Source: Clostridia bacterium
GTDB taxonomy: Bacteria > Bacillota > Clostridia > Oscillospirales > CAG-382
Direction of reading: 5' to 3'
Assembly (NCBI GenBank): GCA_017466805.1
Contig: JAFTTN010000027.1
Span: forward strand, 1-35,489
DNA length: 35,489 nt
Part shown: positions 1 through 25,132 of the stretch, in pieces
Layout: each line of letters opens with the position of its first letter
How positions within the stretch are numbered: the first letter of the stretch is position 1
The notes under the pieces: model-generated
What the model was told of the DNA's origin: nothing
Database searches by the model: none
What the model saw: the letters and a program-made list of their open reading frames with translations, nothing else
Position numbers and translations under genes: made by a program

Positions 1-340
1 GGCGCGTGTTGAATGGTGCGTCGGGGACGCGCCAGACCGCGCCACAGCTCCGCCCCGGGGTCCCCAAAAATGAGCCAAGGAATTTTTGGGGTGGACGAAG
101 GCGGGCGAATCCCTTGCGGCGTGCCAAGAACAGACGGGTAAATCCCGTCTGTTTTTGTTTGTGTAATATGGGATTCGAAGGGCGCGTGTTGAATGGTGCG
201 TCGGGGACGCGCCAGACCGCGCCACAGCTCCGCCCCGGGGTCCCCAAAAATGAGCCGAGGAATTTTTGGGGTGGACGAAGGCGGGCGAATCCCTTGCGGC
301 GTGCCAAGAGCAGACGGGTAAATCCCGTCTGTTTTTGTTT
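1..340. repeat. Tandem structured intergenic repeat, two units with 180-bp period
   Basis: Positions 1-160 and 181-340 match at 158 of 160 bases; the differences are A77/G257 and A130/G310. The 20 bases between the units (161-180) are not part of the matched block. Each unit contains an inverted repeat (CCCCAAAAAT at 62-71 with ATTTTTGGGG at 82-91, and again 180 bp on), further outer pairing potential (GTCC/GGAC and CCGCC/GGCGG around it), and a terminator-like hairpin at its end. Both differences fall outside the paired arms. The window begins at the same base as the second unit, so more copies may lie upstream. The apparent reading frame across it simply follows the repeat, so I do not call a protein. 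Function unknown. Confidence 0.93.
131..160 (+). terminator. Terminator-like hairpin in repeat unit 1
   Basis: CAGACGGG (131-138) pairs with CCCGTCTG (144-151) over an 8-bp stem with a 5-nt loop, followed by TTTTTGTTT. This has the form of a rho-independent terminator on the plus strand. Confidence 0.65.
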
Positions 341-424: not shown

Positions 425-3076
425 GTGAAATTATCACGCTATATATCGTTTTTGGTTGCCGTGTTAATGCTGTTTTCTGCGGCTTGCCTGCCGTTTTCCG
501 CAAGCGCGGCTGTCGATTTGTCGGAATTCAACCTTACCACAGGGCAAAAATATTTTCTTCGCGTGCTCGGCTCGCTTTCGCGCGCGGATTATTATCAGAC
601 CGACGTTTTGGGCTCGGTCACGCTTGCGCAGGCGATATACGAGGGCGGCTGGGGCAGATATTCGCTCCCTGTCGGCGGCAATAACCTTTTCGGCATAAAG
701 GCATACAGTTCTTGGCCCGGAATGGTTTACGACCAAAAAACGTCGATACTTTATTCCTGCTACTCCGATTATTTGTTTGCCGAGGGGCAGGGACATATTA
801 ACACCTATTCGGCTTGGCGTGCGCACGAGAATTGGGCGGAAAGCGTTGCCGTACATAGCGCACTCTTCCACAACGAATCGAAATACGCGGCTGTCGTCGG
901 CGAAAAGAACTATAAGGTTGCCGCAAAGGCGATAGTCGATGCAGGCTATTGTAACGATTACGGCTACGTCGATACGGTTATAAAGCTTATCGAGCAATAC
1001 GGGCTTACCGAATACGACGATTTAACCCCCGATGAAGACGGTGTTGTTGCCGTAGTTACCGAGCCGGAAAGAGTTCTGCTCGATATCGGAAGCGAATATA
1101 CCGTTCCGCTTACCTATTATCCCGAAACGGCTGTCGCTTCGAGCGTTACCTGGGCAAGCGATAACGAAAGCGTTGCCACGGTTGATGAAAACGGCAAGGT
1201 TACCGCACTTGCACACGGTATGACGCTTATTACCGCAACGCTGGCAAACGGCAGGGAAGCCTGCTGTATAGTTTACGTCGATTGCAACGCAACGGTTATC
1301 GATAAGGATGCGACGGTTTATACCTCGCCCTCGACCTCTGCCGATAATAACGGCAAAATTTACCGCGGTATCGCAGTAAAGGTGCTCGACGAAACGGTTT
1401 ATACCGATACCGACGGTACTGGATTTTACAAGGTCGAAGGCTACAACAGCAAAAACGAGCTTGTGAACGGTTACCTGCTTGCACAGTATATTTATTTAAA
1501 CAAGCGCAACGTTTCTACTATCGCGGTGGTTAAGGACAATATAACGGTTAAGCTTGGCGAAAGCTATACGGTTAAAACGGTTGTTGCTCCTGCCGATGCG
1601 GTCGATACAACGCTTATATGGACAAGCGATAACGAAAGCGTTGCCACGGTTGACGAAAACGGCGTTATAACCGCAAACGCTATCGGAAGTGCGGTGATTA
1701 CCGCTTCTGCTTTCGGCGGCTGCGAAAGAAAAATAAGCGTTACTGTTGCCGAGGAGTACCGCGAATATAAGGCACTTGTTTCGGCTTACGAAACGCTTAC
1801 CGTGCGTACCGAGCCGAAATCCGATTCGGCGCGTGCGGGCAAGCTCGATTTTCTTTCGAGCGTAACGGTTATCGGCGAAGCAGAGGGCGAATGGTACAAA
1901 ATTAGCGGCACCGAAGCCGATGGCGACAGCGTTGTAGGCTACGCAAATTCTGCGTATATACGCATAATCGAAGATTCACACACGGTTACCTATGGCAATG
2001 CGCCTGCCGATATAAAGGTTTACAGCGAAAAAAATACGAATTCGATTTCCTACGGCACGCTTACCGAAGAAAGCGTATATGCAATACTCGAGCTTGACGA
2101 CGAAAACGGCTGGAGCTATATTGTAGGTATAAAAACCTCCGACGAGGCGGTACACGGCTATGCACAGCTCGACGGCTCGGGCTCGACGGTAACACCGCCC
2201 GATATCGAGCAGGGAAGCGATATCCCCGCAAACAGCTATTACGGCAGAACGACAAGCGATTTGTACGTTCGCAGCGGTGCGGGTAGCGGCTATGAAGCGG
2301 TCGGTCAGTTTGCAAACGGCTCGCAGATAATAATTATCGGCGATGCGGTAGACGGCTGGTATTCGGTTATGGGTATCGATAAGGACGGCAACGAAATTTC
2401 GGGCTATTCCTCGGCGGATTATATAACCGTTTTGTATTCGGGCAGCGTTAATGCAACCACGCTTAACGTGCGCGATGCCGCGGTAAGCGGCGAGGTCGTC
2501 GGTCAGTTTAAAAAGGATGAAAAGATTATTGTGGTCGGCGATATTATCGACGGCTGGTATTCTGTCGAAAGCCTCGACGGAAGCATAAAGGGATATTGCT
2601 CGGGCGATTATATTGTTTTGAACGGCAGGCTCGAGCCGCCCAAGGAGGAAGACCCCGAGCAGAGCTTCGAAATCCTCGATAACAGCCTTTCTATCACCGA
2701 AGGGGTGCTGACGGGAGTTAAGCTCGAAACGAGCGCAGAGGCGTTTTTGGCGTGCTTTAACGGCGACGTAAGGCTAACCGATGCAGAGGGCAATCTTTTG
2801 GAGGGCGAAGCACTCGTCGGTACCGGCTGCAAGCTTATATTAAGCACCGACAGCGAGGAAAAAACGCTTGCCGAAATACTTGTTAAAGGCGACGTCGACG
2901 GAAACGGTAAGGTGTCCGAGATGGATTATATATTAATCAAGCGTCACTTCTTCGGTACCTATACCCTGCAGGGCTTATATTACGAAGCGGCGCTGTTGAG
3001 CGGCGAGAATTACGTTGACGTGCTCGATTACGTATTGGTAAAACGTCATTACTTCGGCACTTACGTGATAAGTTAG
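425..3076 (+). CDS. Secreted GH73 glucosaminidase with Big_2, SH3 and dockerin-like modules
   Basis: An 883-residue exported peptidoglycan hydrolase. GTG is chosen as start because AAAGGAG sits 7 nt upstream. Residues 1-28 form a signal peptide ending in A-S-A. Residues about 60-195 are a GH73 (mannosyl-glycoprotein endo-beta-N-acetylglucosaminidase-like) domain; the family motif A-Q-A-I-Y-E-G-G-W-G places the likely catalytic glutamate at E73. Then follow Big_2 Ig-like (209-286), SH3-like (289-358), Big_2 (366-441), and four further SH3-like repeats (about 448-515, 518-583, 604-670, 672-733). A short domain at 746-820 precedes a dockerin-like C-terminus (820-883). The first calcium-type loop, D-V-D-G-N-G-K, is intact; in the second copy it is lost although the K-R-H-Y-F-G-T helix remains. 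The role is probably cell-wall turnover or daughter-cell separation at the surface. The glycosidase call is strong; linkage specificity is inferred from the family. Confidence 0.9.
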   Translation: MKLSRYISFLVAVLMLFSAACLPFSASAAVDLSEFNLTTGQKYFLRVLGSLSRADYYQTDVLGSVTLAQAIYEGGWGRYSLPVGGNNLFGIKAYSSWPGMVYDQKTSILYSCYSDYLFAEGQGHINTYSAWRAHENWAESVAVHSALFHNESKYAAVVGEKNYKVAAKAIVDAGYCNDYGYVDTVIKLIEQYGLTEYDDLTPDEDGVVAVVTEPERVLLDIGSEYTVPLTYYPETAVASSVTWASDNESVATVDENGKVTALAHGMTLITATLANGREACCIVYVDCNATVIDKDATVYTSPSTSADNNGKIYRGIAVKVLDETVYTDTDGTGFYKVEGYNSKNELVNGYLLAQYIYLNKRNVSTIAVVKDNITVKLGESYTVKTVVAPADAVDTTLIWTSDNESVATVDENGVITANAIGSAVITASAFGGCERKISVTVAEEYREYKALVSAYETLTVRTEPKSDSARAGKLDFLSSVTVIGEAEGEWYKISGTEADGDSVVGYANSAYIRIIEDSHTVTYGNAPADIKVYSEKNTNSISYGTLTEESVYAILELDDENGWSYIVGIKTSDEAVHGYAQLDGSGSTVTPPDIEQGSDIPANSYYGRTTSDLYVRSGAGSGYEAVGQFANGSQIIIIGDAVDGWYSVMGIDKDGNEISGYSSADYITVLYSGSVNATTLNVRDAAVSGEVVGQFKKDEKIIVVGDIIDGWYSVESLDGSIKGYCSGDYIVLNGRLEPPKEEDPEQSFEILDNSLSITEGVLTGVKLETSAEAFLACFNGDVRLTDAEGNLLEGEALVGTGCKLILSTDSEEKTLAEILVKGDVDGNGKVSEMDYILIKRHFFGTYTLQGLYYEAALLSGENYVDVLDYVLVKRHYFGTYVIS

Positions 3077-3094
3077 AATTTAATAAAAAAATAT

Positions 3095-3133
3095 GCGAGA
3101 GGAGCTTTTTATAAAAGTCCCTCTCGCTTTTTT
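3095..3133 (+). terminator. Rho-independent terminator after the GH73 gene
   Basis: GCGAGAGG (3095-3102) pairs with CCTCTCGC (3120-3127), with extra CTTTT/AAAAG pairing inside the loop, followed by six T residues. Confidence 0.85.
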
Positions 3134-3226
3134 GTATTTTTTTACGGTGCGACACTGTTGCTTTAATATGAATGTGACAACGACACACTATAAAAATTTA
3201 ATCCTAAAAATTTTTAGGAAAGAGCA

Positions 3227-3260
3227 CGAGAGAACCCTTTTTATAAAAAGGGTTCTCTCG
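3227..3260 (-). terminator. Perfect 34-nt hairpin after the minus-strand gene, CGAGAGA family
   Basis: Bases 3227-3243 are the exact reverse complement of 3244-3260 (17 bp, no loop left over). It follows the stop codon of the gene ending at 3288 and has flanks like those of the hairpins at 6644-6677 and 19048-19079. There is no U tract on the gene's strand, so it may act as a 3'-end stabiliser or processing site as well as, or instead of, a terminator. Confidence 0.7.
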
Positions 3261-3287
3261 TAAAAACTAATATTAAAACCTAAAAAC

Positions 3288-6200
3288 TCAACCAATCACG
3301 AATGTGCCGAAATAGTGGCGCTTGATAAGTATGTAGTCGTACTGGTTAACCGCGCCGTCGCAGTTGACGTCTGCGGGAAGCATTTCGTCTTCGGTGAGAT
3401 AACGGGTTTCGAAGTAGTGACGCTTAACGAGAATGTAATCGTATTGGTCGATCTTGCCGTCTGCGTTAACGTCGCCGAGAACGTATTCGGGTGCTTCAAA
3501 GGTGACCGTATCTGAGAACAGAACGGTTTCGTCATTGAAGAGTATTCCGCAGATATAGGTTTCGCCGCTTGCGGCTGCCTTAAGTTCGGCTTCGGTTTCG
3601 TCTTCAATGATGGTATAGAGCGTGAGAGTACCGCTTGCGGTGAAGGTCGTATCTTCTTCATAGCTGTCGACGTAGAAGTAGTAGTGTCCGTCAAAGGGAG
3701 CTTCAAGGGTGAAGGTTCCGTCTTCGTATACAACCTTGAAGCTAACGGAATCGTCGTAAGCTTCGTCATAGATGACCCACAGTCTATCGTTTCTGACGTC
3801 GGTGCTGGGAGTGATCGAGATCACGTCGCCTTTCTTCAATTCGATATTGAAGATGTCGTATTCATATATGGGTACTATTTCATAATATTCATCCCAGTAC
3901 GAATCGCTGTGAGAATAACCATTGAGACCTTCGACCAGCTCGAGGTCAGCGGTCTGGTCGGTGCCGTTGTTGAATATAACGTATTCTGCTTCTTCGGGAA
4001 GATCGTAGTAGTATATACCGTTATCTTCGTCGTAGGTCATTGCTTCGCCGGGCCAGCTGGTGAGTTCGGAGTTGTCATCGCTCCAGAAGAATACGTTTGC
4101 GTTTGTCCAATCGGTATCAACGAAATAGACTCGGTTGGGAACCATTTCGTCACTTGTGCCTTCCCACTCGTCATAAAGCGAGGGAACCCAATAGCCATTT
4201 TCTTTATCGTAGTAAGAGGGCTCGCCAATGGTCTCGCCATCGTAATAGACGGGGTCTGCGTATTCATCGGTGATAATTACGTCTTCAACGGTGACCTTGA
4301 ACCACTGATAAGCTACGACGCCTTCGGGGAAGTTGACCTCAACAGAGGGATCCTCGACGGTGGGCTGCTTGGTTATTGCGTAGTCCATCCTGAAGTGATC
4401 GGAAACGAGAGCCGTGTCGTCTTCATAAGTTGCCTCTGCGCCGTAAACACTACCGTATTCGAAGGAGGAAAGCGTTTTGTCGGTTTCGCCCTCGATAGGC
4501 TCGAAGTCGTAGGAGCTTATTTCGAACTTGACGGTCGTGGTTTCGGGATCAATGCAGTAGTGATATACATTGTAAGTGTCGGATTTGGTGATTACTACGC
4601 TGCCAACGCCCGATTCGTCGAATTCGACGTATTCGGTCGAAGAATCTCCACTGAAACGCATTTCGGGGTCAGATGGAGACATCGCGTCGGGATTGGTGAG
4701 TGTTACGTTTACAAGCGTACCTGCCTCGAGGTAAATATCAAAGTACTCGGATATGTATTCCATATATCCCGAATAGCTATAGGGCTCGCCGTGCTCGCCC
4801 GTCCAGATGCCTGTTTCGGAGTCGTACGTGCCGACTGCATTCGATACCATAGTATCGTCTAAGGGTGTGATTACGGGAGTGCCGATGAACCATTGGAACT
4901 CCGCTTCGTCCTCGAAGGACACCAAAAGGGTGGGGTCTGCCGCGGTGGGCTGAGAAATGATTCTGTAGTCTGCCGCGAAGAAATAGGATGCGAGAGCAGA
5001 ATCGTTCTTATCGGTGATAAGGCAACGGTAAACATTGTTGACGTCCATTTCGGTAAGAGTGCTTTCGGTTTCGCCCTCGACGTCTTCAAAGGAAGCAACC
5101 TTTCCGCTTGCCATACATCCGATTTCGGAGGGATTGACGTAAGAACCGACAGCTAAGGTATAAATGCCTGCTTTGTCAACCGTGGTATAAAGGACGCCGT
5201 TCTCATCTTCTTCAAACTCGTATTCGATCATAGTGTCCATATTGGACAGTGTGATGTTCATAATATAGGACATATCCGAAAATTTAACGTAAACGTCGCC
5301 TTCCTCGAAGTACGCGCTGAAATATACGGCTACGTAAACGCTGTCCGGAGCGGAAACGTACGTGGATGCGGAAGCGATCGTGGGAGTGGGAATCTCAATT
5401 TTTGCGACTGAAGGGTACCACGCGCTGATTTCGTCTGAAATTTCAACGTAAGAGCTGTTGGGGACAAGGGTTTGTATTTGGTCAAAAAATCCTGCGGGCG
5501 CAATGTCGCTGATACTTGCGAACAGCTCGCCTAAGTCGGCGGGAGATGCGCAGTCGGGCGTGATAGGCTGCTCGCTCGATTCGCCGAGGATCTGCCACTG
5601 GTAGGATTTGACCTCGTCGGGCAAAGAAACCTCAACGGAGGGGTCGCCGATGGTGGGCTGCTTGGTTATAACAAGCTCTGCTTTGACGCGGTTGGATTTT
5701 ACAACGGTCTCGCCTGCGGTCACTTCGCAGAAATAGGTCTTGCCGAGAACGTATTCGGAAAGGGTGCTTTCGGTTTCGCCCTCGATCGCGGTGCTTGCGT
5801 AGTCGTTGAGCCATGCTTTAGCTGTCGGAGCGTCGCCTGCTATCCTCGACGTATACGTCGTAATGGGGGCTGCGGCGTAGGCAAAAAGCACGTAGTATGC
5901 GCCTGTGTCGACAGTGATGGTATAGCTGCCGGCTTCGTTGGAGATGCCGTGGCAAGCCTTTCCGCTTTCGTAATCGCCGAGTCCGCAGCCTTCCACGGTA
6001 TCATCGCTGAATTCTACGGTGATGCTTTCGCCTGCTTCAAGGTAGATGGCGAAATATTCGGCGTACTCGCCGTCGGACATAGGGATCCAGGTGCCGAGCT
6101 CTTCATTGTAGGAAGAGGTGCCGGTAAGCTGCGGGGTGTTTTCCACGGTGGTAGCAATGGTATCGTCGATAGCGGTGAGCACGAGGTTTTCCTTATCGAC

Positions 6201-6365
6201 CTCATACCATTGATAAGTGACGCCGCTGTCAAGGTTGACCTCAACAGACATATCGTCGGCTGTGGGTTGCTTTGTTATTAGCAATTCGGTGTCTTCCGCC
6301 GATACGATAACCGTGCAGGAAAGCACCATAATGAGTGCTAACAAAATACTTGTAAAGCGTTTCAT
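3288..6365 (-). CDS. Secreted Ig-like repeat protein with nested CBM26-like module and dockerin-like C-terminus
   Basis: A 1025-residue surface protein; no catalytic domain is recognised. Signal peptide about 1-23. Four repeats (about 29-230, 232-467, 469-662, 664-958) each begin with K/S-Q-P-T, then a Y-Q-W or F-Q-W strand, and close with E-G-E-T or similar plus T-L and an aromatic-x-C-type strand, resembling bacterial Ig-like domains. Between those halves each carries an inserted PPC-like beta-sandwich (around Y-L-E-A-G-x-x-x-x-V). In repeat 4 a starch-binding CBM26-like module (about 743-812; V-Y-F-V-D, W-P-G-E-A-M-T, V-I-F-N-N, Q-T-A-D-L) is inserted again. The C-terminal dockerin-like pair (962-1025) has loops D-V-N-A-D-G-K and D-V-N-C-D-G-A. 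The ATG follows a GGAGG site. The likely role is a polysaccharide-binding or adhesive surface stalk (inference). It is a paralogue of the next gene (6700-10881). Confidence 0.8.
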   Translation of the reverse strand: MKRFTSILLALIMVLSCTVIVSAEDTELLITKQPTADDMSVEVNLDSGVTYQWYEVDKENLVLTAIDDTIATTVENTPQLTGTSSYNEELGTWIPMSDGEYAEYFAIYLEAGESITVEFSDDTVEGCGLGDYESGKACHGISNEAGSYTITVDTGAYYVLFAYAAAPITTYTSRIAGDAPTAKAWLNDYASTAIEGETESTLSEYVLGKTYFCEVTAGETVVKSNRVKAELVITKQPTIGDPSVEVSLPDEVKSYQWQILGESSEQPITPDCASPADLGELFASISDIAPAGFFDQIQTLVPNSSYVEISDEISAWYPSVAKIEIPTPTIASASTYVSAPDSVYVAVYFSAYFEEGDVYVKFSDMSYIMNITLSNMDTMIEYEFEEDENGVLYTTVDKAGIYTLAVGSYVNPSEIGCMASGKVASFEDVEGETESTLTEMDVNNVYRCLITDKNDSALASYFFAADYRIISQPTAADPTLLVSFEDEAEFQWFIGTPVITPLDDTMVSNAVGTYDSETGIWTGEHGEPYSYSGYMEYISEYFDIYLEAGTLVNVTLTNPDAMSPSDPEMRFSGDSSTEYVEFDESGVGSVVITKSDTYNVYHYCIDPETTTVKFEISSYDFEPIEGETDKTLSSFEYGSVYGAEATYEDDTALVSDHFRMDYAITKQPTVEDPSVEVNFPEGVVAYQWFKVTVEDVIITDEYADPVYYDGETIGEPSYYDKENGYWVPSLYDEWEGTSDEMVPNRVYFVDTDWTNANVFFWSDDNSELTSWPGEAMTYDEDNGIYYYDLPEEAEYVIFNNGTDQTADLELVEGLNGYSHSDSYWDEYYEIVPIYEYDIFNIELKKGDVISITPSTDVRNDRLWVIYDEAYDDSVSFKVVYEDGTFTLEAPFDGHYYFYVDSYEEDTTFTASGTLTLYTIIEDETEAELKAAASGETYICGILFNDETVLFSDTVTFEAPEYVLGDVNADGKIDQYDYILVKRHYFETRYLTEDEMLPADVNCDGAVNQYDYILIKRHYFGTFVIG

Positions 6366-6403
6366 TTTTTTTCCTCCTTAATGGTTTTATATAACCTATA
6401 ACA

Positions 6404-6469
6404 ATTATATCACGCTTTGAATAAAAAAACACTACACCAAAACGTAAAAAAATGGGTAGTGTTTTTGTG
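6404..6469 (-). promoter_or_regulatory. Promoter region with conserved 40-nt upstream block and inverted repeat (gene B)
   Basis: On the minus strand TATAAT lies at 6409-6404. Exactly 20 nt upstream is a 40-nt block (6430-6469), 35/40 identical to one before the paralogous gene (10965-11004). The block holds CACTACACCAAAAC and TAGTGTTTTTGTG (plus-strand reading). Here it also forms an inverted repeat, AAAAACACTAC (6425-6435) with GTAGTGTTTTT (6456-6466). No clear -35 hexamer is seen, so activator dependence is plausible. Confidence 0.6.
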
Positions 6470-6643
6470 AATATTATCATATATTTTTTGTGTGCTTTGC
6501 GTTGCTACGCTTTGCTTTCGACGAAAAGCGAAGCGTAGAACAGACAATAGACAGATAGGTTATCCCGCTGCCGCAAATTCAAGAGATAGCAGCAATGATA
6601 CACCGTAAATTATTATTGCTTTAAAAGTTTTTGGGAGAGAGCG
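6470..6643. other. Intergenic segment with a 14-bp hairpin; no gene seen
   Basis: Between the two large repeat-protein genes. It contains an inverted repeat with arms 6505-6518 and 6525-6538 (14 pairs including one G-T, 6-nt loop). No open frame with a ribosome binding site, RNA gene or T tract was recognised. It may be part of the 3' untranslated region of the gene ending at 6700 or an upstream operator of the gene starting at 6365. Confidence 0.55.
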
Positions 6644-6677
6644 CGAGAGAGGACTTTTTTCAAAAAGTCCTCTCTCG
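6644..6677 (-). terminator. 34-nt hairpin after the minus-strand gene, CGAGAGA family
   Basis: Arms 6644-6659 and 6662-6677 pair perfectly over 16 bp. It follows the stop codon of the gene ending at 6700. The flanks (AAAAGTTTTTG and AGAGAGCGCGAGAGA on one side, TCTCTCGTAAT on the other) recur at 19028-19083 and, partly, at 3210-3262. Confidence 0.7.
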
Positions 6678-6699
6678 TAATCTATTTTCGATTAAAAAC

Positions 6700-9600
6700 T
6701 CAACCAATAACAAAGGTGCCGAAGTAGTGGCGTGCGATAAGGATGTAATCGTATTGGTCGACCTTGTTATCCTTGTTGACGTCGGCACGAATCGCTTCGT
6801 CTTCCGTAAGAATGCGGGTTTCGAAGTAGTGGCGTTTTACAAGAATGTAATCGTATTGGTCGATTTTGCCGTCGTCGTTAACGTCGCCGAGAACGTAGGA
6901 GGCTTCGAGGTATGCGGGAGTCGAAACAAGCTTGAAGCCCTCGCCGTAGGTGATAACGCAGTAGTAAAGACCCGATTCGAAATCGCCGAGCGTCTTTTCG
7001 GTTTCGCTCTCGATAGCTACCGCTTCTTCGAATTCGCCCAAATATGCCTTGAAGGTGATATCCTTTGCAAATGTTTCTACGTAGAAGCTGTAAGTGCCAT
7101 CAACGGGAGCTGTGAAGGTGTAAACGCCGTTATTATAGGTCCAGCAATCGTAGTCTACGTAAGAATTTATTGTCGACGCATAGATAAACCTGTATTTGAT
7201 CTCGTCGCTCGGGATAATGGTGAGAACGTCGCCCTCCTTGAGCTCGATTTCAAAGATGTCGAATTCGTAGAGTTCAACGTCGCCGTATTCTTCGATTTTA
7301 TAAAGCGAGGGTACCCAGTAGCCGTTTTCTTCGTCGTAGTAGGAGGGGTCGCCTTCGGAGTCGCTGTAATGCGCAGAGGATGCGTTTTCCTCGGTGATTT
7401 CTTCGCCGTTGCCTGCGTTAAAGTACCACTGATATTCGGTATCCGCATTTTCGAAGTTGACCTCGACACTCGGGTCGTCGGAGGTGGGGTTCTTGGTTAT
7501 AACGGGAGCGGCGATGAAGGTGTTGGAGGCAAGAACCGCGCCGTCTTCATACGTTGCAACGCATACGTAGTAATTGCCGAGAGTGAGGGCGGAATCGGAA
7601 AGCGTCTTTTCGGTCTCGCCCTCAAGCGCTGTATTTTCGAAGGATACGAATTCAAAGCGCGCGCTTATTTCGGGTGTCAGCGCATAGCTGTAGAGCTCAT
7701 AAGTGCTGCTTTCGGGAGCCTCGAAGATGTAGGTCCCTTCGTATGCGGGGCGTACGTATATTGAATAGCCTTCTTCATAAGAATAGAAGCGGAATTCATT
7801 GTCGATCGAAATGGCGGAGGGATCCTCAAAGGTGACGAACACTGCGTCTCCCTTTTCGAGGTATATATCAAACCATCCCGCCATGTATTCGGTGATGCCG
7901 TAGTAATCGCTTCCTTCGTCGTCACTTGCGGTCCAGTATCCGGTTTCCTTGTCGTAGGAGGCGTCGATGTCATCTACATAGGTGTCGTCGATGGTGACGA
8001 ATTCGGGCTCGGACTCGTACCACTGAAATTCCGCCTTATCCTCAAAGGTAACCTCAAGCGTGGGATCCTTTGCGGTGGGCTGCTTGATGATTTTGCCATT
8101 CGCGCGCAGGATATCCGATTCGAGAATCGTGTCGTCCGGATAGGTTGCGGCACAAATATAATGATAATTGTACTTGATGTTGCTTAAGGTCTTATCGGTT
8201 TCGCCCTCGATAGGCTCGAAGTCGTAGTCGGAGATTTCAAACTTGGCGGTTACTTCTTCGTCAATAGTGTAATTGTAAAGAAAGTAGTAATCGCTTTCGG
8301 GAGCCTCGAATACGTAGGTCTTGCCGTCGGCCCCGGGGGCAACCGATTCGGTGTAGTCTTCGTAGTAGAGAGAAAAATAGAATTTATCGTCGAGGGCAAT
8401 AACAGACGCGTCGTCGAGGGTGATCGTTAAAACCTCGCCCTTGTTGAGGTATAACTCGAACCATTCGATTTCATACATGGTAGCATCCGCATATTCAAAG
8501 GAACCTGCCGCGTAGCCGGTCCAGCGTTCGGTACCCTCATCGTAGCTTGCTGCCGAATCGTATACGTCGTCATCGTTAAGGCTTGTGTGTACTAAAGGCG
8601 ATTCGTACCATTGGAATTCGGCGCTGTCCTCGAAGGTTACTTCGAAGGTGGGGCGTGTAACGGTAGGGTGCTTGATTATGTCGGGTACTGTCGAAATTAC
8701 GTCGGACTCGACGTTCATTCCAAACGGGAAGGAGGCTTCACAGTAATAGCTCTTTCCGTATTCAAGCGCAGAGAGCGTGTCGGTGGTTTCGCCTTCTACT
8801 GCGGTTACGGATTCGTCGTCATTTATTGCATACCACTGATATTTCGCTTCGTTCGCGAAGGTTACTTCAAACGTGGGATAATCCGCGGTGGGCTGGGATA
8901 CAACAGTCGGGATTGCACGGAAGCTGTTGGAGCCGAGCGTGATTTCGTTGCCGAAGTCAGCTACGCAGTAGTACAGGTAGCCGGCAGTCATATTGTTTAA
9001 GGTGTTTTCGGATTCGCCGTCCATAAGTACGGGCTCGCTCTGCTCGATCATAAACGCCTTGATCTTGGAATCGAGCGAGGGGGTGTTTGCAGAAACGATA
9101 TAGGTCGCATCGTTTTCGGAAGAGAATACCATAACGTTGCCTACCATACTGTAGGAGGGGGTGTGTCCTTCGAATCTGTCGGGGTCGAAGAGCATAAGCT
9201 CGGTTATTTCGGGCGGGCAGTCGAAATAAACTACGTCGCCTGCCTTCAATTCGATCTCGAAATAGAACAGCTCGTGTCCGTCGCCCGCATCGCAACGCTT
9301 CGCACCCGTCCAGAGCTCTGTTACGGGGTCGTACGTGGAGGTGACGTCGGTTTCACAGGTCGAGCAAACGTTAGAAGCATTTTCATTCGTGAAGAGCTTT
9401 TCGGTAAGCACGGTTTCGTACCACTTGTATGCTTCTACCGGATTATTGGGATACACATCAAAGGTGGGCTGGCGGAACGTGGGCTGGCGATCGACGTAGG
9501 GAACGGTGCTGAAGCTGTGCTCGATCTTGTTTTCGCCGATAGAAACGATTAATTTGTAGTTCTTGTTTACCTTGGGGGTAATAGAGCTGCCGGTTGCATC

Positions 9601-10881
9601 TGCGATGAGCTCGCCGTCTTCATACCATTCGTAAGTTGCCGAATCGGCAAAAGCTTCGTCGATCTCTACGTAAGGCTCATCGGCGGTGGGTTTGTGCGTG
9701 ATAAGCTCGACCGCAACAATATTGCCGCCGTCGTCGCAGGTAATTATCTTACTCGGCTGATCTGCGAAGAAGTACCTTTCCATACCCTCGAGGGTGGTAA
9801 GGCTTGCTCCGTCGGGAGCTGCGACGTATTCGTTTGTATGTGTGTACAAATCAACGCATATTTTGCTGCCCACGCCCAATTCCTCGCAAACGGTGAAATA
9901 ACCCGTTTGATCGTTGAATCGTAGGTTAAGCGCTTCGCTTCCTTCGTAAATTCCCTTTTCTTCGTTATAAGTGCCGTTCTTGACGTTATCGCTTATAACG
10001 ATGACACCGCCTGCCAAAACAGCGTTTTTATCAATGAATACGCCGTGGTCCGAGGACGAGTTGCCGTAGATCTTGGTGTCGATAAAGGTGGGGACGCATT
10101 CCGAAAAATATACGCTTCCGCCGAGATCGACTGCGCTGTTTCCGTAAATTTCGCATCCGTCGAGCGTGACGAAGGATTTCTTCGAGTAGATCGCGCCGCC
10201 CGAGGCGCTTGCCTTGTTGTTGTAAAGCTTTGTGTTGGTAACGTTCAGCGTCACGTTGCTTTGAGTATAAATGCCTGCACCGCTATACGCTTTGTTGTTG
10301 AATATCTCACAGTTTTTAACGTTGAGTGTTTTGGGGGAGTCGTTCGTTGTCTTTATAGCGGAGTCTGCACAATCGTGTACACGGCAGCTGTCGAGCGTGG
10401 TCGTTGAATCTGCCGTACAGCGTACGGCAGAGCTCGTACCTTTAATATCGATTCCGTAAAGGCTTGTGCTGCCGTAGTTTGTTACGTCGCCATTACCGTT
10501 GCAGCGTATGCCGTTATCGCCGCCGGATGCGCAGTCGCAAATATTCAAAGTGCCGCCCGGTACGACGAATACCACGTAATAGTTGGCGTCGTTCTGGATG
10601 ATGGAATAACCGTTGAGACAGAGGTTCAACGTTGCACCCTTCGAAACCGTAATGCAATAGGTGCTGTCAAAGACCAGGTCCTCGGTAAGATAGACGTTGG
10701 CATCGGACGTATAGTCTAAAGTGCCGTCGTACGGGGTGAATTCGAGCTGCTCGCCATCGGTGGTAGAGCAATCGACGCACATTGCGTGTGAATGAGTCTC
10801 GACCGCGAAAACCGCAAGCGGCGCGATCGAAAGCAACATAAACAACGAAAGAATAATGGATAATAACCGTTTTGCTTTCAT
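6700..10881 (-). CDS. Giant secreted beta-helix and Ig-like repeat protein with dockerin-like C-terminus
   Basis: A 1393-residue surface protein. The ATG at 10881 is chosen because AAAAGGAG precedes it; an in-frame ATG 14 codons earlier has no such site. Signal peptide about 1-26. A His/Cys-containing segment (30-38) is followed by a right-handed parallel beta-helix region (about 80-300) with repeated N-N-K-A / Y-G-N-S and G-G-A-I-Y or similar turns. Six K/R-Q-P-T-type Ig-like repeats follow: two bare (394-463, 659-733) and four with an inserted PPC-like sandwich (464-657, 735-927, 930-1124, 1127-1326). The dockerin-like C-terminus is at 1330-1393, with loops D-V-N-D-D-G-K and D-V-N-K-D-N-K, ending in R-H-Y-F-G-T-F-V-I-G. 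Very acidic and Tyr-rich. It is a paralogue of the gene at 3288-6365 but lacks its CBM26-like insert. Adhesin or carbohydrate-contact function is inferred. Confidence 0.8.
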   Translation of the reverse strand: MKAKRLLSIILSLFMLLSIAPLAVFAVETHSHAMCVDCSTTDGEQLEFTPYDGTLDYTSDANVYLTEDLVFDSTYCITVSKGATLNLCLNGYSIIQNDANYYVVFVVPGGTLNICDCASGGDNGIRCNGNGDVTNYGSTSLYGIDIKGTSSAVRCTADSTTTLDSCRVHDCADSAIKTTNDSPKTLNVKNCEIFNNKAYSGAGIYTQSNVTLNVTNTKLYNNKASASGGAIYSKKSFVTLDGCEIYGNSAVDLGGSVYFSECVPTFIDTKIYGNSSSDHGVFIDKNAVLAGGVIVISDNVKNGTYNEEKGIYEGSEALNLRFNDQTGYFTVCEELGVGSKICVDLYTHTNEYVAAPDGASLTTLEGMERYFFADQPSKIITCDDGGNIVAVELITHKPTADEPYVEIDEAFADSATYEWYEDGELIADATGSSITPKVNKNYKLIVSIGENKIEHSFSTVPYVDRQPTFRQPTFDVYPNNPVEAYKWYETVLTEKLFTNENASNVCSTCETDVTSTYDPVTELWTGAKRCDAGDGHELFYFEIELKAGDVVYFDCPPEITELMLFDPDRFEGHTPSYSMVGNVMVFSSENDATYIVSANTPSLDSKIKAFMIEQSEPVLMDGESENTLNNMTAGYLYYCVADFGNEITLGSNSFRAIPTVVSQPTADYPTFEVTFANEAKYQWYAINDDESVTAVEGETTDTLSALEYGKSYYCEASFPFGMNVESDVISTVPDIIKHPTVTRPTFEVTFEDSAEFQWYESPLVHTSLNDDDVYDSAASYDEGTERWTGYAAGSFEYADATMYEIEWFELYLNKGEVLTITLDDASVIALDDKFYFSLYYEDYTESVAPGADGKTYVFEAPESDYYFLYNYTIDEEVTAKFEISDYDFEPIEGETDKTLSNIKYNYHYICAATYPDDTILESDILRANGKIIKQPTAKDPTLEVTFEDKAEFQWYESEPEFVTIDDTYVDDIDASYDKETGYWTASDDEGSDYYGITEYMAGWFDIYLEKGDAVFVTFEDPSAISIDNEFRFYSYEEGYSIYVRPAYEGTYIFEAPESSTYELYSYALTPEISARFEFVSFENTALEGETEKTLSDSALTLGNYYVCVATYEDGAVLASNTFIAAPVITKNPTSDDPSVEVNFENADTEYQWYFNAGNGEEITEENASSAHYSDSEGDPSYYDEENGYWVPSLYKIEEYGDVELYEFDIFEIELKEGDVLTIIPSDEIKYRFIYASTINSYVDYDCWTYNNGVYTFTAPVDGTYSFYVETFAKDITFKAYLGEFEEAVAIESETEKTLGDFESGLYYCVITYGEGFKLVSTPAYLEASYVLGDVNDDGKIDQYDYILVKRHYFETRILTEDEAIRADVNKDNKVDQYDYILIARHYFGTFVIG

Positions 10882-10914
10882 TTTTTCTCCTTTTAAAAAA
10901 TAAATGTTTTTTAT

Positions 10915-10948
10915 TAAATACATTATAGCATTAAATACATTATAGCAT
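10915..10948 (-). promoter_or_regulatory. Duplicated extended -10 promoter element (two 17-bp direct repeats)
   Basis: Bases 10915-10931 and 10932-10948 are identical, and each reads TGCTATAAT on the minus strand, an extended -10 (TGnTATAAT). The distal copy (10944-10939) keeps the 20-nt spacing to the conserved upstream block that is seen at gene B. The proximal copy (10927-10922) could start a second transcript 17 nt downstream. Confidence 0.7.
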
Positions 10949-10964
10949 GACTTTATTCAAAATT

Positions 10965-11004
10965 CACTACACCAAAACATAGAAAAAAGGATAGTATTTT
11001 TGTG
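10965..11004 (-). promoter_or_regulatory. Conserved 40-nt upstream block (gene C copy)
   Basis: 35 of 40 bases match 6430-6469. Both boxes, CACTACACCAAAAC (10965-10978) and TAGTATTTTTGTG (10992-11004), are 13 nt apart as in gene B. The outer inverted repeat is less complete here, so the primary sequence is conserved better than the hairpin. Probably a transcription-factor site. Confidence 0.6.
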
Positions 11005-11100
11005 TAAATTAATGTTTTAACTAAGGTATAGCCGACATTTTCGGTTCGAACATGTTGACGCAAACGGTAGATTTTAAGAATCCATTACGGCGCAATTGTG

Positions 11101-11129
11101 TTGACAACTGTTTTGGGGTGTGTTACAAT
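11101..11129 (+). promoter_or_regulatory. SigA-type promoter of the GHL10 gene
   Basis: TTGACA at 11101-11106, a 17-nt spacer, and TACAAT at 11124-11129. GGAG at 11148-11151 serves the ATG at 11158. Confidence 0.8.
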
Positions 11130-11157
11130 TTGCATATAAACAGTGTTGGAGAAACGT

Positions 11158-13728
11158 ATGAACAAATTGTTGGCTTTGGTTACGGCGGTTGCTGTTTTTA
11201 TAATATTTACTCCGTTTTCGGTCTCGGCGGACAGTATTGTGATTGAAATAGATGACGTGAATGGTTCAAGAGGCGAGAACCAAACGATTTTATATAATAA
11301 TTCCGGCGAAACGACCGGCACAAACGAGTGGGGATGTGAAATATCAGTAACCTGCGGGGTAGTCACATCTGTCGAAGGGTTCAATAATATCATACCTTAC
11401 GGTGAAAACAGTTTTGTTGTTTCGGGACACGGGACTGCGGGCGATGTATTAAAGTCTGTAACAGTCGGAATGAAGGCTGTATTCGATTCGAAAGAGCAAA
11501 CCGTTACCTTTATAAAAGATTCCGATACGCATAAGGTGCATATCGACATAGCAAGAAGCACTGCTCTGCAAGCAAAAAACAATGCCGAAAAACAGTGTCT
11601 TGCCGTAGATAAAAACGCCGACGTCCGCCTTCGAACAGCCGAAGAAAAATATTCTTCGTTAGACGGCGATATAGACGAAGCAAGGGCAGAGGCGTTGATA
11701 AAGGAGTATAATTATATAGCTTCTTTGTTTCGCGAACGTTCTGTTTCTCAATACCGCGCTATTTGGATTACTCCTTCACAGAAAAACTATGCGGAAGTCG
11801 AAGCATTCGTGAGAAAATGCGCAGAGTCGGGAATAAATACCATATCGCTCGAAACGTTTACCGATGGTACGATGATCTGCCCTATGCCCGCAGATAGCTT
11901 ATTTGAGCAAAATCCCGATCTCAACGATTTCGATTTGCTCGGGGCTTTCGTAGAGGTCAGCCATAAATATAACATCGAGCTGCACTGTTGGATGCCGAAT
12001 TTTATCTCGGGCAACACGTTGAGTCGAAACTGGGAACGCACCTTGGCGGCAAAAAAACCCGAATGGAGATTGCTTACAAATCACGGCTCTCCCTTCGCGG
12101 CAAATCAAACGGACGGTAACGTATATTTGAATCCCGCATTGGAGGAGGTCAGAGAAACGCTTGCCGAGAGCTATCGGTATATTTTGGAAAACTATGACAT
12201 TGATGGCTTCGAACTTGATTATATACGTTACGAAGGCTCGTCCGCAACCGACGATTTCGGATATGACTATGTAACCATCGAGAAATTCAAGGCCGAATAT
12301 CCACAGTATTCAAGTTGTGAAATAATCTACGATAAAACCGCAGATTATTGGACCGCGTGGGTTGATTTCCGCGCCTCGCAGGTTAGTGAGTTCGTGAAAT
12401 TGATGCGAGAAACTATTGACCAAACCGGCAAGGATATTATTTTATCGGCCGATGTCGGCAGCGTTTCTGCAGATTCCTACAACGTTCATTATCAGGACAG
12501 CAAAAGATGGTTATCGGAAGGTTGGCTCGATATGATTCACCCGATGGCATACGGAGAATTCGATGCCGACAATGTTGCCACCTTTTTTTCCAATATGCCC
12601 GAGGGATGCCTTATGGTTCCTATATTGGGTATATACCGAGATATATTTGATGCAGAGGATATGTTCGTTCAAACCTCTCGGATGTTTGACGTGGGATGCC
12701 ATGGTATTGGTTATTTCGCAGAAGAAGCTTTCTTTACCAAAAACTGCGGAGCTTTTCTCGGCGAAACGCTGTTTACCGAACCGGCTGTAGCACCTCATTT
12801 TAATAATTCCAACACAACGGTCGCCGAGCTTTGCAGATTTGTCGAACGACTCGAAACGGCGCATAACTCGAATTATATCACCGACGAAGATAAATCCAAG
12901 CTTGCGTCTATTGCGGACAAGGCTATACATCAAACAAAAGCAAGCTCTGCTAAAGACGCCAAAGAGATAATAAAACAAGCGATAACCTATCTCGAAACCA
13001 ATCTTGAAGAAACCGCTCTGCGAAATAGATTACAGCTTGATTTAAAAAATGCATATTTTGCCGCAATTTCCGACAACGGTGACGATTATGATGAAACTAT
13101 TGGTATAGTTACAGCTTTTCCCGAATCCGCACAAGGAAAAATACAGCTCACTATCGATAAAATAAACAGCGTCCATAAAGGAGAAGATTCGATTATTATC
13201 ACAGATCCCGAAGCTATGTCGGACTGTTATGTTAACTATGCTTACGTAATGCTGTTGTCGCCTGTTGAAGAAGTCGGCGGTGTATATGAGTTGGTTGAGG
13301 CGGCTCAAAACTACGGCACTCCCGGCACTTTTAAAACGCAGCTCAAAGAGGGGATGATAGTCGTTTCTTTCCATACCGATGAAACCGGCGGCGGACTTGA
13401 ACGCCGCAATCTCGCAAGAACGGTAAGTATCGGCTCCGAGTTTGTTCTTTGGGGTATCGATGCCGCTACCGGCGAGTATACTGCGCTTTATTCTATGCTT
13501 TATGAATATACCCGGTCTTCCGATGCCGAGTCAACAATCGGCGACGTAAACGGTGACGGAGATATTGATCAATACGATTACATTCTCGTTAAGCGCCACT
13601 ATTTCGAAACGCGTATTCTTTCCGAAAACGAAGCTTTGCGCGCAGACGTAAACAAGGACGGCAAGATCGACCACTACGATTATATACTTATTTGCCGCCA
13701 CTACTTCGGCACGTATACCATAGCTTGA
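11158..13728 (+). CDS. Secreted GHL10-type (DUF187/YngK-like) glycosidase with dockerin-like C-terminus
   Basis: An 856-residue exported protein. The ATG at 11158 has GGAG 6 nt upstream and gives a clean signal peptide (about 1-24); an upstream in-frame start at 11143 has no ribosome binding site. An all-beta N-terminal domain (about 28-120) is followed by a glycosyl-hydrolase-like 10 TIM barrel (about 197-540): R-A-I-W-I-T-P near 200, L-H-C-W at 275, N-P-A-L-E-E-V at 325, G-F-E-L-D-Y-I-R-Y at 350-358 with probable catalytic residues E352/D354, and M-I-H-P-M-A-Y at 459-465. Predicted helical bundle about 555-650, a beta region, then the dockerin-like pair (793-856) with two good loops. GHL10 relatives act on wall or secondary-wall polysaccharides, but substrates are poorly defined. 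Codon use is more AT-rich than in gene A, a mild hint of a separate origin. Confidence 0.85.
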   Translation: MNKLLALVTAVAVFIIFTPFSVSADSIVIEIDDVNGSRGENQTILYNNSGETTGTNEWGCEISVTCGVVTSVEGFNNIIPYGENSFVVSGHGTAGDVLKSVTVGMKAVFDSKEQTVTFIKDSDTHKVHIDIARSTALQAKNNAEKQCLAVDKNADVRLRTAEEKYSSLDGDIDEARAEALIKEYNYIASLFRERSVSQYRAIWITPSQKNYAEVEAFVRKCAESGINTISLETFTDGTMICPMPADSLFEQNPDLNDFDLLGAFVEVSHKYNIELHCWMPNFISGNTLSRNWERTLAAKKPEWRLLTNHGSPFAANQTDGNVYLNPALEEVRETLAESYRYILENYDIDGFELDYIRYEGSSATDDFGYDYVTIEKFKAEYPQYSSCEIIYDKTADYWTAWVDFRASQVSEFVKLMRETIDQTGKDIILSADVGSVSADSYNVHYQDSKRWLSEGWLDMIHPMAYGEFDADNVATFFSNMPEGCLMVPILGIYRDIFDAEDMFVQTSRMFDVGCHGIGYFAEEAFFTKNCGAFLGETLFTEPAVAPHFNNSNTTVAELCRFVERLETAHNSNYITDEDKSKLASIADKAIHQTKASSAKDAKEIIKQAITYLETNLEETALRNRLQLDLKNAYFAAISDNGDDYDETIGIVTAFPESAQGKIQLTIDKINSVHKGEDSIIITDPEAMSDCYVNYAYVMLLSPVEEVGGVYELVEAAQNYGTPGTFKTQLKEGMIVVSFHTDETGGGLERRNLARTVSIGSEFVLWGIDAATGEYTALYSMLYEYTRSSDAESTIGDVNGDGDIDQYDYILVKRHYFETRILSENEALRADVNKDGKIDHYDYILICRHYFGTYTIA

Positions 13729-14884: not shown

Positions 14885-15997
14885 ATGTTAGATAACGGTT
14901 TAAACAATCAACAAGAGCAATTTGCGGAACCCCCTGCTTTGCAAAGCAGAAAAAAGGATAAAAAAACGGTTAAGGCGTGTATTGCGCTGGCGGTTGCAGC
15001 ATTGCTGCTCGTTGCTTCGCTTATTGCCGCGCTGTTTCAGTTCGGCGGGCAAGAGCAAGCAGAAAGCGCGGGCGCCGAAGGCTCGGAGCAGAGCGCGTAT
15101 TTTGCCGAATCGAGCGAAACAAGCGCCGAAAGCGAAGAGGTAAGCGAGGAAATATACGAGGAATCTTTGGAATTATTTCCGCAAATCGAAGCGGTACTGC
15201 CCGAAAACTGCCAAGCGGCAGGAATTTACGAATTTGGTTCGCTATATTGCATTTTTGCCGAAAACGCAACCGAAAAGCGCAGTCTTGCAAGCATAACCAA
15301 GCTTATTACCGCATCGGTTGCGCTTAAATACCTTTCGCCCGAATACGAAATTACCGCCGGAAGCGAGCTCGATTTGGTGAAGCCCGATTCGAGCGTTTGC
15401 GGATTGCAAAAGGGATACAAGCTTACACTCGAACAGCTTTTATACGGACTTTTAATGTCCTCGGGTAACGATGCGGCGTATACTGTGGCGGTGAATGTTG
15501 CGCGCGAGGTAAGTGAAAGCGAGCTTAACGATAAAGAGGCGGTCGAATATTTTTGCGTGCTTATGAACGAGCTTGCCGAGGAAATCGGCGCGGTTAACAG
15601 CTCGTTTGCCAATCCGGAGGGCTGGGACGACGAAAATAACTATTCCACTATTGCCGATATAGCGCTTATTGCAAGATATGCAAAGGAAATCGAGCTTATT
15701 GCCGAAATTTCCAAAACCGATCATTATACTGCCGTTATTTCCTCGGGCGAGGAAATGGTATTTTCGAATTCGAACTTTATGCTTCACCCCGAAAGCCAAT
15801 TTTATAATTCTGCGGTGACGGGCTTAAAAACCGGAAGCACGAGCGGTGCGGGCAAATGTCTTGCGGCAACGCTTGAAATAGACGGATTTGAGTATATCGC
15901 GGTGGTTATGGGCTGCCCCGACGAGCAATCACGCTACGGCGCGATGAAAACGCTTATAGAATATGTAGAGGAATATCACGAATTGAAATTTTCGTAA
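14885..15997 (+). CDS. D-alanyl-D-alanine carboxypeptidase (S11 family penicillin-binding protein)
   Basis: A 370-residue membrane-anchored enzyme that trims the terminal D-Ala of peptidoglycan stem peptides. There is a short cytosolic N-terminus, one transmembrane helix (about 31-53), then an acidic Ser/Glu-rich linker (55-98). The S11 catalytic triad of motifs is complete: S-I-T-K at 136-139 (nucleophile S136), S-G-N at 193-195, and K-T-G-S at 315-318. The C-terminal beta domain of DacA-type proteins is absent, so this is a short DacF/VanY-independent type. The ribosome binding site before ATG is weak (ACAGG region). The gene starts 25 nt after the fba terminator and no clear promoter was seen between, so expression is either low or from read-through. 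Confidence 0.92.
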   Translation: MLDNGLNNQQEQFAEPPALQSRKKDKKTVKACIALAVAALLLVASLIAALFQFGGQEQAESAGAEGSEQSAYFAESSETSAESEEVSEEIYEESLELFPQIEAVLPENCQAAGIYEFGSLYCIFAENATEKRSLASITKLITASVALKYLSPEYEITAGSELDLVKPDSSVCGLQKGYKLTLEQLLYGLLMSSGNDAAYTVAVNVAREVSESELNDKEAVEYFCVLMNELAEEIGAVNSSFANPEGWDDENNYSTIADIALIARYAKEIELIAEISKTDHYTAVISSGEEMVFSNSNFMLHPESQFYNSAVTGLKTGSTSGAGKCLAATLEIDGFEYIAVVMGCPDEQSRYGAMKTLIEYVEEYHELKFS

Positions 15998-25091: not shown

Positions 25092-25132
25092 TGGCATCAT
25101 CCTTTATTCAAATCTTGTTACAGTATATGCTG

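What the first reader, a model, noticed from the sequence alone, without database searches (positions are those of the whole stretch)
425..13728. Four secreted proteins in one cluster share a distinctive C-terminal dockerin-like tag ending in R-H-Y-F-G-T
The proteins at 425-3076, 3288-6365, 6700-10881 and 11158-13728 have unrelated N-terminal domains (GH73, Ig/CBM26, beta-helix/Ig, GHL10) yet end in the same two-repeat module: G-D-V-N-x-D-G-K-I-D-Q-Y-D-Y-I-L-V-K-R-H-Y-F, a spacer T-R-x-L-x-E-x-E, then a second loop and K/A/C-R-H-Y-F-G-T-Y/F-x-I at the extreme C-terminus. The calcium loops are dockerin type I-like, but the strictly kept aromatic K-R-H-Y-F-G-T helix at the very end is not the usual cohesin-contact pattern. 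It may be a sorting or docking tag with an as yet unknown receptor. No cohesin is in the window.
Basis: partly seen in the sequence, partly recalled or inferred. Interest (0 to 1): 0.75.

Follow-up and report, generated by a model that had tools for sequence, protein, structure and literature searches.

The report
Dockerin tags of a cellulase-free cellulosome-like system
The shared protein ending is a standard dockerin plug in a species-specific spelling, the same genome encodes likely sockets (cohesins), and the tagged proteins include bacterial cell-wall enzymes but no recognised cellulases, so this is a known docking architecture with unusual cargo.

Summary
The four C-terminal modules are type I dockerins. 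Three of four carry the full pattern; the GH73 protein has a degenerate second calcium loop and no such spacer. KRHYF sits in the helix positions that known dockerins use, so it is not an unusual surface. The tag is genome-wide: 37 dockerin hits, 24 with RHYFGT, 23 of those near the C-terminus. Candidate receptors exist in the same genome: a cohesin protein with a hydrophobic tail, in two overlapping pieces on C36 and C21, and a protein with two cohesins plus a dockerin on C86. Relatives share this layout. RHYF is one species' dialect: dockerins resemble their genome-mates more than their orthologues in 37 of 48 pairs. The cargo has no recognised plant-wall glycosidase; 7 of 37 proteins hold wall-hydrolase families. 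Dockerin-bearing wall hydrolases, and the idea of a bacteriolytic 'lyticome', are already in print (PMC6403190), so I rate this a new member of a known kind.

The parts
425..3076 (+). GH73 glucosaminidase with Big_2 and SH3_3 domains and a C-terminal dockerin; signal-like N-terminus by eye
   Evidence: Pfam Glucosaminidase 73.8 bits, four SH3_3 and two Big_2 stretches; sequence
2888..3073 (+). Dockerin module of divergent subtype: loop 2 lacks the calcium ligands at positions 1, 3 and 5
   Evidence: more like its orthologues in G011 and G019 than the own-genome average
3288..6365 (-). Protein with a CBM26 module and repeated segments, C-terminal dockerin; signal-like N-terminus by eye
3291..3476 (-). 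Symmetric dockerin module (Q-Y at positions 10/11 in both repeats)
6700..10881 (-). Repeat protein, C-terminal dockerin (open frame to 10923; likely start MKAKRLL at 10881)
   Evidence: Dockerin_1 41.9 bits; no other family over its cut-off; sequence
6703..6888 (-). Symmetric dockerin module (Q-Y at positions 10/11 in both repeats)
11143..13728 (+). GHL10 glycosidase-like protein, relative of Cwp19, C-terminal dockerin; signal-like N-terminus by eye
   Evidence: GHL10 77.7 bits, Dockerin_1 45.9 bits; PDB 5oq2 Cwp19, E 1.5e-7
13540..13725 (+). Symmetric dockerin module (Q-Y and H-Y at positions 10/11)

Best explanation
The shared C-terminal module is a type I dockerin. After export, a tagged protein most likely folds its two EF-hand-like loops around calcium and plugs into cohesins of the same cell: a cohesin protein with a hydrophobic C-terminal tail (C36/C21), or a two-cohesin-plus-dockerin adaptor (C86) that carries the same dialect of dockerin and could itself plug into the tailed cohesin. 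The result would be surface display, or small complexes, for up to 36 proteins besides the adaptor. Q-Y at positions 10/11 and K-R-H-Y-F at 17-21 are this species' recognition dialect. By cargo it is not a cellulosome: wall hydrolases, phosphodiesterase-type proteins, GDSL proteins, transglutaminases and many proteins of unknown role. Shown: dockerin identity, number of carriers, cohesin-family domains and their layout, genome-wide dialects, cargo families. Inferred: binding, which cohesin takes which dockerin, export and anchoring, and the role.
For: Dockerin_1 in the four window proteins and 37 hits in the genome. Best cellulosomal matches in the PDB are 2ccl_B and 1ohz_B, E 9e-9 and 1e-8. 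Cohesin hits over the cut-off at C21, C86 and C36. The C36 and C21 ends share 141 identical bases and the pieces read as an N-terminal region, a cohesin and a hydrophobic tail ending KTRK. A profile of this family finds solved cohesins: 5nrk_A and 5nrm_A at 0.0017-0.0018, 4ums_A at 0.0034, 3ul4_A at 0.0041. The C86 protein holds two homologous cohesin modules (36% identity, E 1e-16) and a dockerin whose second repeat is QYDYILIKRHYFGT. Cohesin in 44 and dockerin in 52 of 60 genomes, this one included, at E 0.001. Nine adaptors align, this one included. Dialects, first repeats: positions 10-11 are QY in 26 of 36 here; SM, AV, SI or AM in 30 of 47 in G011; AA or AS in 16 of 37 in G019. The nearest dockerin is from the same genome in 107 of 118, and cargo orthologues carry dockerins less alike than own-genome paralogues in 37 of 48 pairs, as expected if a cell's dockerins track shared cohesins.
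Against: No binding or structural test: structure prediction was off. Own cohesin scores are modest: 28.8-29.4 bits; by protein 35.4 (C86), 30.4 (C21) and 23.0 (C36 piece, under the 24.1 cut-off). The C21 piece alone finds nothing in the PDB up to E 1. Only two cohesin proteins are assembled for 37 dockerins; the draft is 73% complete. The other 11 of 48 pairs, all from four families (GH73, SH3_3, Amidase_3, subtilase), have dockerins that follow the orthologue, so a second specificity may exist. Same-genome likeness could also come from gene conversion: the C64 and C39 dockerin genes share an identical 141-base end. Three of the 24 genomes of the genus have dockerins but no cohesin hit (G003, G010, G016). 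The tail lacks a strict LPXTG. The Amidase_3 protein shows no evident signal peptide by eye; no signal predictor was run.
Confidence: 0.82

Rival explanations
1. The assembly is murolytic: a surface complex that dismantles peptidoglycan and phosphodiester wall polymers of other bacteria, as food or in competition (the 'lyticome' idea of PMC6403190).
For: Wall-hydrolase families in 7 of 37 own dockerin proteins: GH73, GHL10 twice, GH25+CHAP, GH25, CHAP, Amidase_3. Also two NAGPA, one GDPD, one deacetylase, two GDSL. GH73, GHL10, Amidase_3, GDPD, NAGPA, Metallophos and GDSL recur as dockerin cargo in G011 and G019. An S11 carboxypeptidase and a SpoIID-like PG-binding protein in the window, and one of two Amidase_3 genes (C7), are not among the dockerin hits.
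Against: Most tagged proteins lack such domains. In G019 only GH73, GHL10 and Amidase_3 appear (at most 3 of 37 ORFs), with no GH25 or CHAP. F5/8C domains are in 16 of 45 G011 ORFs. That GDPD or NAGPA proteins act on wall polymers here is recalled, not tested. The enzymes could serve the cell's own wall.
Confidence: 0.22
2. General surface display: dockerin-cohesin docking holds many envelope and adhesion proteins on the cell, including enzymes that remodel its own wall.
For: Very mixed cargo. Few cohesins and many dockerins, a class that PMC6118326 reads in R. albus as surface anchoring rather than a bona fide cellulosome (passage). One sortase hit and SLH hits in two proteins in the genome.
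Against: The two-cohesin adaptor with its own dockerin suggests assembly as well as display. Some wall proteins are untagged.
Confidence: 0.52
3. One reading: a sorting or docking tag for an unknown, non-cohesin receptor.
For: Strong conservation of K-R-H-Y-F-G-T; three genus genomes with dockerins but no cohesin hit.
Against: Cohesins in the own genome and in 44 of 60 genomes; the helix aligns with the usual contact helix.
Confidence: 0.06
4. Structural or self-associating calcium domains with no partner in trans.
For: Calcium loops alone do not prove docking; degenerate loop 2 in the GH73 protein.
Against: Genome-wide dialects at recognition positions and co-occurring cohesins.
Confidence: 0.05

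Closest known systems
Type I dockerin (Pfam PF00404; xylanase dockerin of PDB 1ohz/2ccl)
   Same: Two duplicated calcium loops, each followed by a helix with a conserved R; aligned over 56 residues at about 1e-8; mostly C-terminal
   Different: Q-Y instead of S-T at positions 10/11 and H-Y-F in the helix; one of four window modules has a degenerate second loop
Ruminococcus champanellensis cellulosome with lysozyme activity and dockerin-bearing cell-wall hydrolases; the 'lyticome' proposal (PMC6403190, passage seen; PMC6780208, passage; the primary papers Morais 2016 and Bensoussan 2017 not seen)
   Same: Cell-wall hydrolases joined to a cohesin-dockerin system
   Different: A cellulosome producer; here no cellulase or GH48 is recognised
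Lachnoclostridium sp. MSJ-17 'scaffoldin-containing' microbe (PMC11557425, section 15 read)
   Same: Single-cohesin proteins with C-terminal transmembrane helices, a two-cohesin scaffoldin with a dockerin, 39 dockerin proteins, presumably non-cellulolytic
   Different: Its scaffoldin dockerin is N-terminal; that section does not describe its cargo beyond one plant-wall enzyme
R. albus / R. bromii class: many dockerins, few cohesins (PMC6118326, passages seen)
   Same: 37 dockerins and two assembled cohesin proteins
   Different: R. bromii docks starch enzymes; here one CBM26 and no amylase among the scanned cargo
R. flavefaciens RflaF_05439, NlpC/P60 protein with X-dockerin (PMC3573020, passages seen)
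   Same: A peptidase of a wall-hydrolase superfamily docked to a surface cohesin; about half of R. flavefaciens dockerin proteins are not carbohydrate-active
   Different: X-dockerin dyad in a full cellulosome
Mucinolysome of Limousia (PMC12997984: abstract and outline, section 20, passages)
   Same: Cellulosome-like system with non-cellulose cargo and a wall-anchored cohesin in gut Clostridia
   Different: Mucin glycosidases such as GH101, GH84, GH33 there; none recognised here, one GH20 each in G011 and G019

Membership tests
Type I dockerin (PF00404) | Sequence match over the curated cut-off across both repeats | tested here: met
   Four of four window modules in the six-frame search; three of four in the whole-protein scan, GH73 protein 22.7 against 22.9 bits
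Type I dockerin (PF00404) | Two calcium loops with D-x-N/D-x-D ligands | tested here: met
   Met in three of four window modules; not met in loop 2 of the GH73 module
Type I dockerin (PF00404) | Binds a cohesin | not testable with these tools
   No binding data; structure prediction off
Cohesin-dockerin system | Cohesin-bearing proteins in the same genome, with export signals | tested here: met
   C21, C36 and C86 over the Pfam cut-off; signal-like N-termini and a hydrophobic tail by eye only
Cellulosome | Scaffoldin with several cohesins | tested here: inconclusive
   Largest seen in this genome holds two; the tailed protein is split at a 141-base overlap, so its number of cohesins is unknown
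Cellulosome | Dockerin-bearing cellulases or hemicellulases, GH48 | tested here: not met
   None by Pfam in the 37 own dockerin proteins, some scanned as partial frames, nor in 37 G019 and 45 G011 ORFs at E 1e-5, where two families of one G011 list are not displayed; nearest are pectate-lyase-like helices, Mannosidase_ig and DUF4015. GH48 over the cut-off in 0 of 60 genomes
Amylosome | Dockerin-bearing amylases | tested here: not met
   One CBM26 protein, no amylase domain among the 37 scanned
Mucinolysome | Dockerin-bearing mucin glycosidases | tested here: not met
   None among the 37 own proteins; one GH20 each in G011 and G019
Lyticome (proposed bacteriolytic complex) | Complex whose dedicated activity is bacterial wall lysis | not testable with these tools
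   Wall-hydrolase families in 7 of 37 own proteins; activity and assembly unknown
Sortase-anchored scaffoldin | LPXTG-type motif, hydrophobic stretch, basic tail | tested here: inconclusive
   VVPGDAS, hydrophobic stretch and KTRK end in L035; PVTGDASS in a G011 protein; one sortase hit

The most novel reading that the evidence does not exclude
These gut Clostridia carry a working lyticome: a cohesin-dockerin machine, free of cellulases, whose main substrate is the bacterial cell wall (peptidoglycan plus phosphodiester wall polymers). Glucosaminidase, GHL10 and GH25 enzymes, amidase, phosphodiesterases, deacetylase and GDSL proteins dock through a species-specific dockerin dialect onto a tailed cohesin, so that gut bacteria are degraded the way cellulosomes degrade plants. 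The concept was proposed in PMC6403190; a dedicated example would be new to what I saw.
Probability: 0.2. Interest if true: 0.72.

Novelty: new member of a known kind. Interest (0 to 1): 0.38.

Why it matters
Cohesin-dockerin assembly is best known for plant polymers, then starch and mucin. A genus that keeps the architecture without recognised cellulases, and docks wall hydrolases and many other proteins, is a candidate for testing the proposed lyticome and for seeing docking as general surface display. The three species compared each spell the recognition residues differently, which gives natural material for learning cohesin-dockerin specificity.

Tried and rejected
Unknown non-cohesin receptor: set aside once cohesins were found. 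A recent four-gene duplication: rejected, since 37 hits lie on many contigs with different partner domains and DNA identity among the window modules is 49-80%. C91:24391 as a cohesin: rejected, 15.3 bits and membrane-protein-like. Classical cellulosome: rejected on cargo and GH48. SLH anchoring of the cohesins: not seen in the two assembled cohesin proteins; one SLH lies in a protein with an N-terminal dockerin. Five weak own-genome matches of the tailed-cohesin profile (C64, C36:10639, C35, C60, C24) looked by eye like other proteins with similar hydrophobic ends. The C21 piece alone found nothing in the PDB. Limits of the counts: one search dropped ORFs with identical last 60 residues (C41:401 duplicates C66:597), so 36 own ORFs remain; one search then dropped two own dockerins cut by contig ends (118 of 120). 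Of G011's 50 hits, C3:1031 and C8:47304 were not fetched, and two ORFs under 100 residues were left out of the scan. For G024, 30 of 89 hits were fetched and 29 of 33 ORFs scanned as partial frames. One search printed 40 cohesin frames, its output was cut, and some of the cut ones were read. On checking, I withdrew an earlier claim that dockerin-bearing wall hydrolases were not in print, and lowered novelty and interest for that reason.
Full report
What is in the window. The window is contig C22 of a draft genome of 1.89 Mb in 92 contigs, 73% complete. The module has two intact calcium loops in the CBM26, repeat and GHL10 proteins. In the GH73 protein the second loop lacks the ligands at positions 1, 3 and 5 and the spacer differs.

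Is the tail unusual? By position, no. Against the xylanase dockerin of PDB 1ohz and 2ccl the module aligns over 56 residues: Q-Y lies on S-T at positions 10/11, KRHYF on KRSVL, and the last helix on SRYL. Positions 10 and 11 of each repeat are established specificity determinants (PMC8063739, passage).

How widespread is it? The genome has 37 Dockerin_1 hits. RHYFGT is present in 24 of the 37 frames, in 23 of them 10-14 residues from the C-terminus; 35 of 37 frames contain R-x-[YF]-F followed by G/E/D/N/K somewhere. Most dockerins are C-terminal. Three precede the other recognised domains: with F5/8C domains (L023), with a pectate-lyase-like helix and SLH (L025), and with a polysaccharide deacetylase (L039). 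One is internal, in a subtilase.

Is there a receptor? Cohesin hits over the cut-off lie on C21, C86 and C36. The C36 frame runs off its contig inside a cohesin and the C21 frame starts inside the same cohesin; the ends share exactly 141 bases. Such exact overlaps suggest a repeated stretch; pairs of contigs ending in the same 141 bases of a cohesin gene are seen in G002 and G006 too. That these are several cohesin proteins per genome is inference. The C21 piece ends in PGDAS, a hydrophobic stretch and KTRK; the same kind of tail recurs in relatives. The C86 protein has two cohesin modules that match each other at 36% identity, of which Pfam reports one, and a dockerin of the local dialect. 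Nine such adaptors align, this one included. A profile of the tailed cohesins finds solved cohesins at modest E-values, 0.0017-0.0041 for the best four; the C21 piece alone finds none.

Relatives and dialects. In 60 genomes including this one, cohesin is found in 44 and dockerin in 52; three of 24 genus members have dockerins but no cohesin hit. Dockerin consensus differs by genome: QYDY with KRHYF here, S/A-x-DY with KR[AV]YF in G011, A-[AS]-[DE]YAM with KR[HA]xL in G019, NSLDAAQVL in G024 of another genus. Among 118 dockerins of the first three genomes the nearest relative is from the same genome in 107. In 48 reciprocal-best cargo pairs the orthologue's dockerin is less alike than the own-genome average in 37; the other 11 pairs are all GH73, SH3_3, Amidase_3 or subtilase proteins, which may carry an older, second dockerin class. 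The window's GH73 protein is one of them.

Cargo. All 37 dockerin proteins of this genome were scanned with Pfam, some as partial frames; one is the adaptor. Seven hold wall-hydrolase families: GH73, GHL10 twice, GH25 with CHAP, GH25, CHAP, Amidase_3. GHL10 relates to Cwp19, which I recall as a peptidoglycan-lytic enzyme. Others hold NAGPA (two), GDPD, polysaccharide deacetylase, GDSL (two), transglutaminase (two), CotH, metallophosphatase, LRR, subtilase, F5/8C or nothing recognised. No plant-cell-wall glycosidase family was seen; nearest are a CBM26 and a pectate-lyase-like helix. In G019 (37 ORFs) and G011 (45 of 47 ORFs) GH73, GHL10, Amidase_3, GDPD, NAGPA, Metallophos, GDSL and GH20 appear in both; GH25 and CHAP only in G011; no cellulase family is displayed, with two families of one G011 list unseen; G019 also shows Mannosidase_ig, DUF4015 and a pectate-lyase-like helix. 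GH48 is over its cut-off in none of 60 genomes. G024, scanned in part, shows Amidase_3 and CHAP cargo too. Untagged wall proteins exist: an S11 carboxypeptidase and a SpoIID-like PG-binding protein in the window, and an Amidase_3 on C7 that is not among the dockerin hits. The tagged Amidase_3 protein shows no evident signal peptide by eye.

Organism. The adaptor is found in ten named MAGs: eight Clostridia from yak, sheep, goat or water-buffalo gut sites, one Oscillospiraceae MAG (SIG634) and one uncultured Clostridia assembly. The window's own record is not named; a ruminant-gut member of the Clostridia is my inference.

Literature. Non-cellulose cohesin-dockerin systems are in print: R. bromii and R. 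albus (PMC6118326, passages), the mucinolysome (PMC12997984, section 20 and passages), Lachnoclostridium MSJ-17 (PMC11557425, section 15). Non-carbohydrate cargo is common: about half of R. flavefaciens dockerin proteins (PMC3573020, passages), and in a bovine rumen gene catalogue only about 24% of dockerin proteins carry a CAZyme domain (PMC7260996, passage). Wall hydrolases with dockerins and lysozyme activity of the R. champanellensis cellulosome are reported, and a bacteriolytic 'lyticome' has been proposed (PMC6403190, passage; GH25 in a scaffoldin, PMC6780208, passage). The listings (15 of 64 shown), judged by title and start of abstract, showed no dedicated cellulase-free wall-degrading complex; most full texts were not read.

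Verdict. What remains of interest is the cellulase-free cargo and the species dialects. Binding, export, anchoring and role are inferred.

Noticed in passing
window 1-340: A 160-base direct repeat occurs twice, 180 bases apart and 99% identical, at the contig start upstream of the GH73 gene.
   Followed up: no
window 2888-3073: The GH73 protein's dockerin has a degenerate second calcium loop and resembles its orthologues in G011 and G019 more than the own-genome average; degenerate second loops also occur in several adaptor proteins of relatives. Possibly a second dockerin class.
   Followed up: partly
L040 and L041 (contigs C64 and C39 ends): A CHAP and a GH25 dockerin gene on different contigs end in the same 141 bases inside the dockerin, a sign of recent exchange or duplication of the tag.
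   Followed up: partly
L025 (C24) and L211:7146-9473 (G019): A conserved protein with an N-terminal dockerin, in L025 followed by a pectate-lyase-like helix and an SLH domain; the same families appear as singletons in the G019 list that holds its orthologue.
   Followed up: partly
L036, L021, L115, L109: A similar uncharacterised segment (in L036 FWVTHVADNTVEGSGVIFTEAY) is found by eye both in cohesin proteins and in a dockerin protein.
   Followed up: no
L259 (G011:C16): Two open frames of 78 and 84 residues that are little more than a dockerin.
   Followed up: no
window 14885-15997 and 22773-25100: An S11 D-alanyl-D-alanine carboxypeptidase and a SpoIID-like protein with five PG_binding_1 stretches, both without dockerin.
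   Followed up: partly
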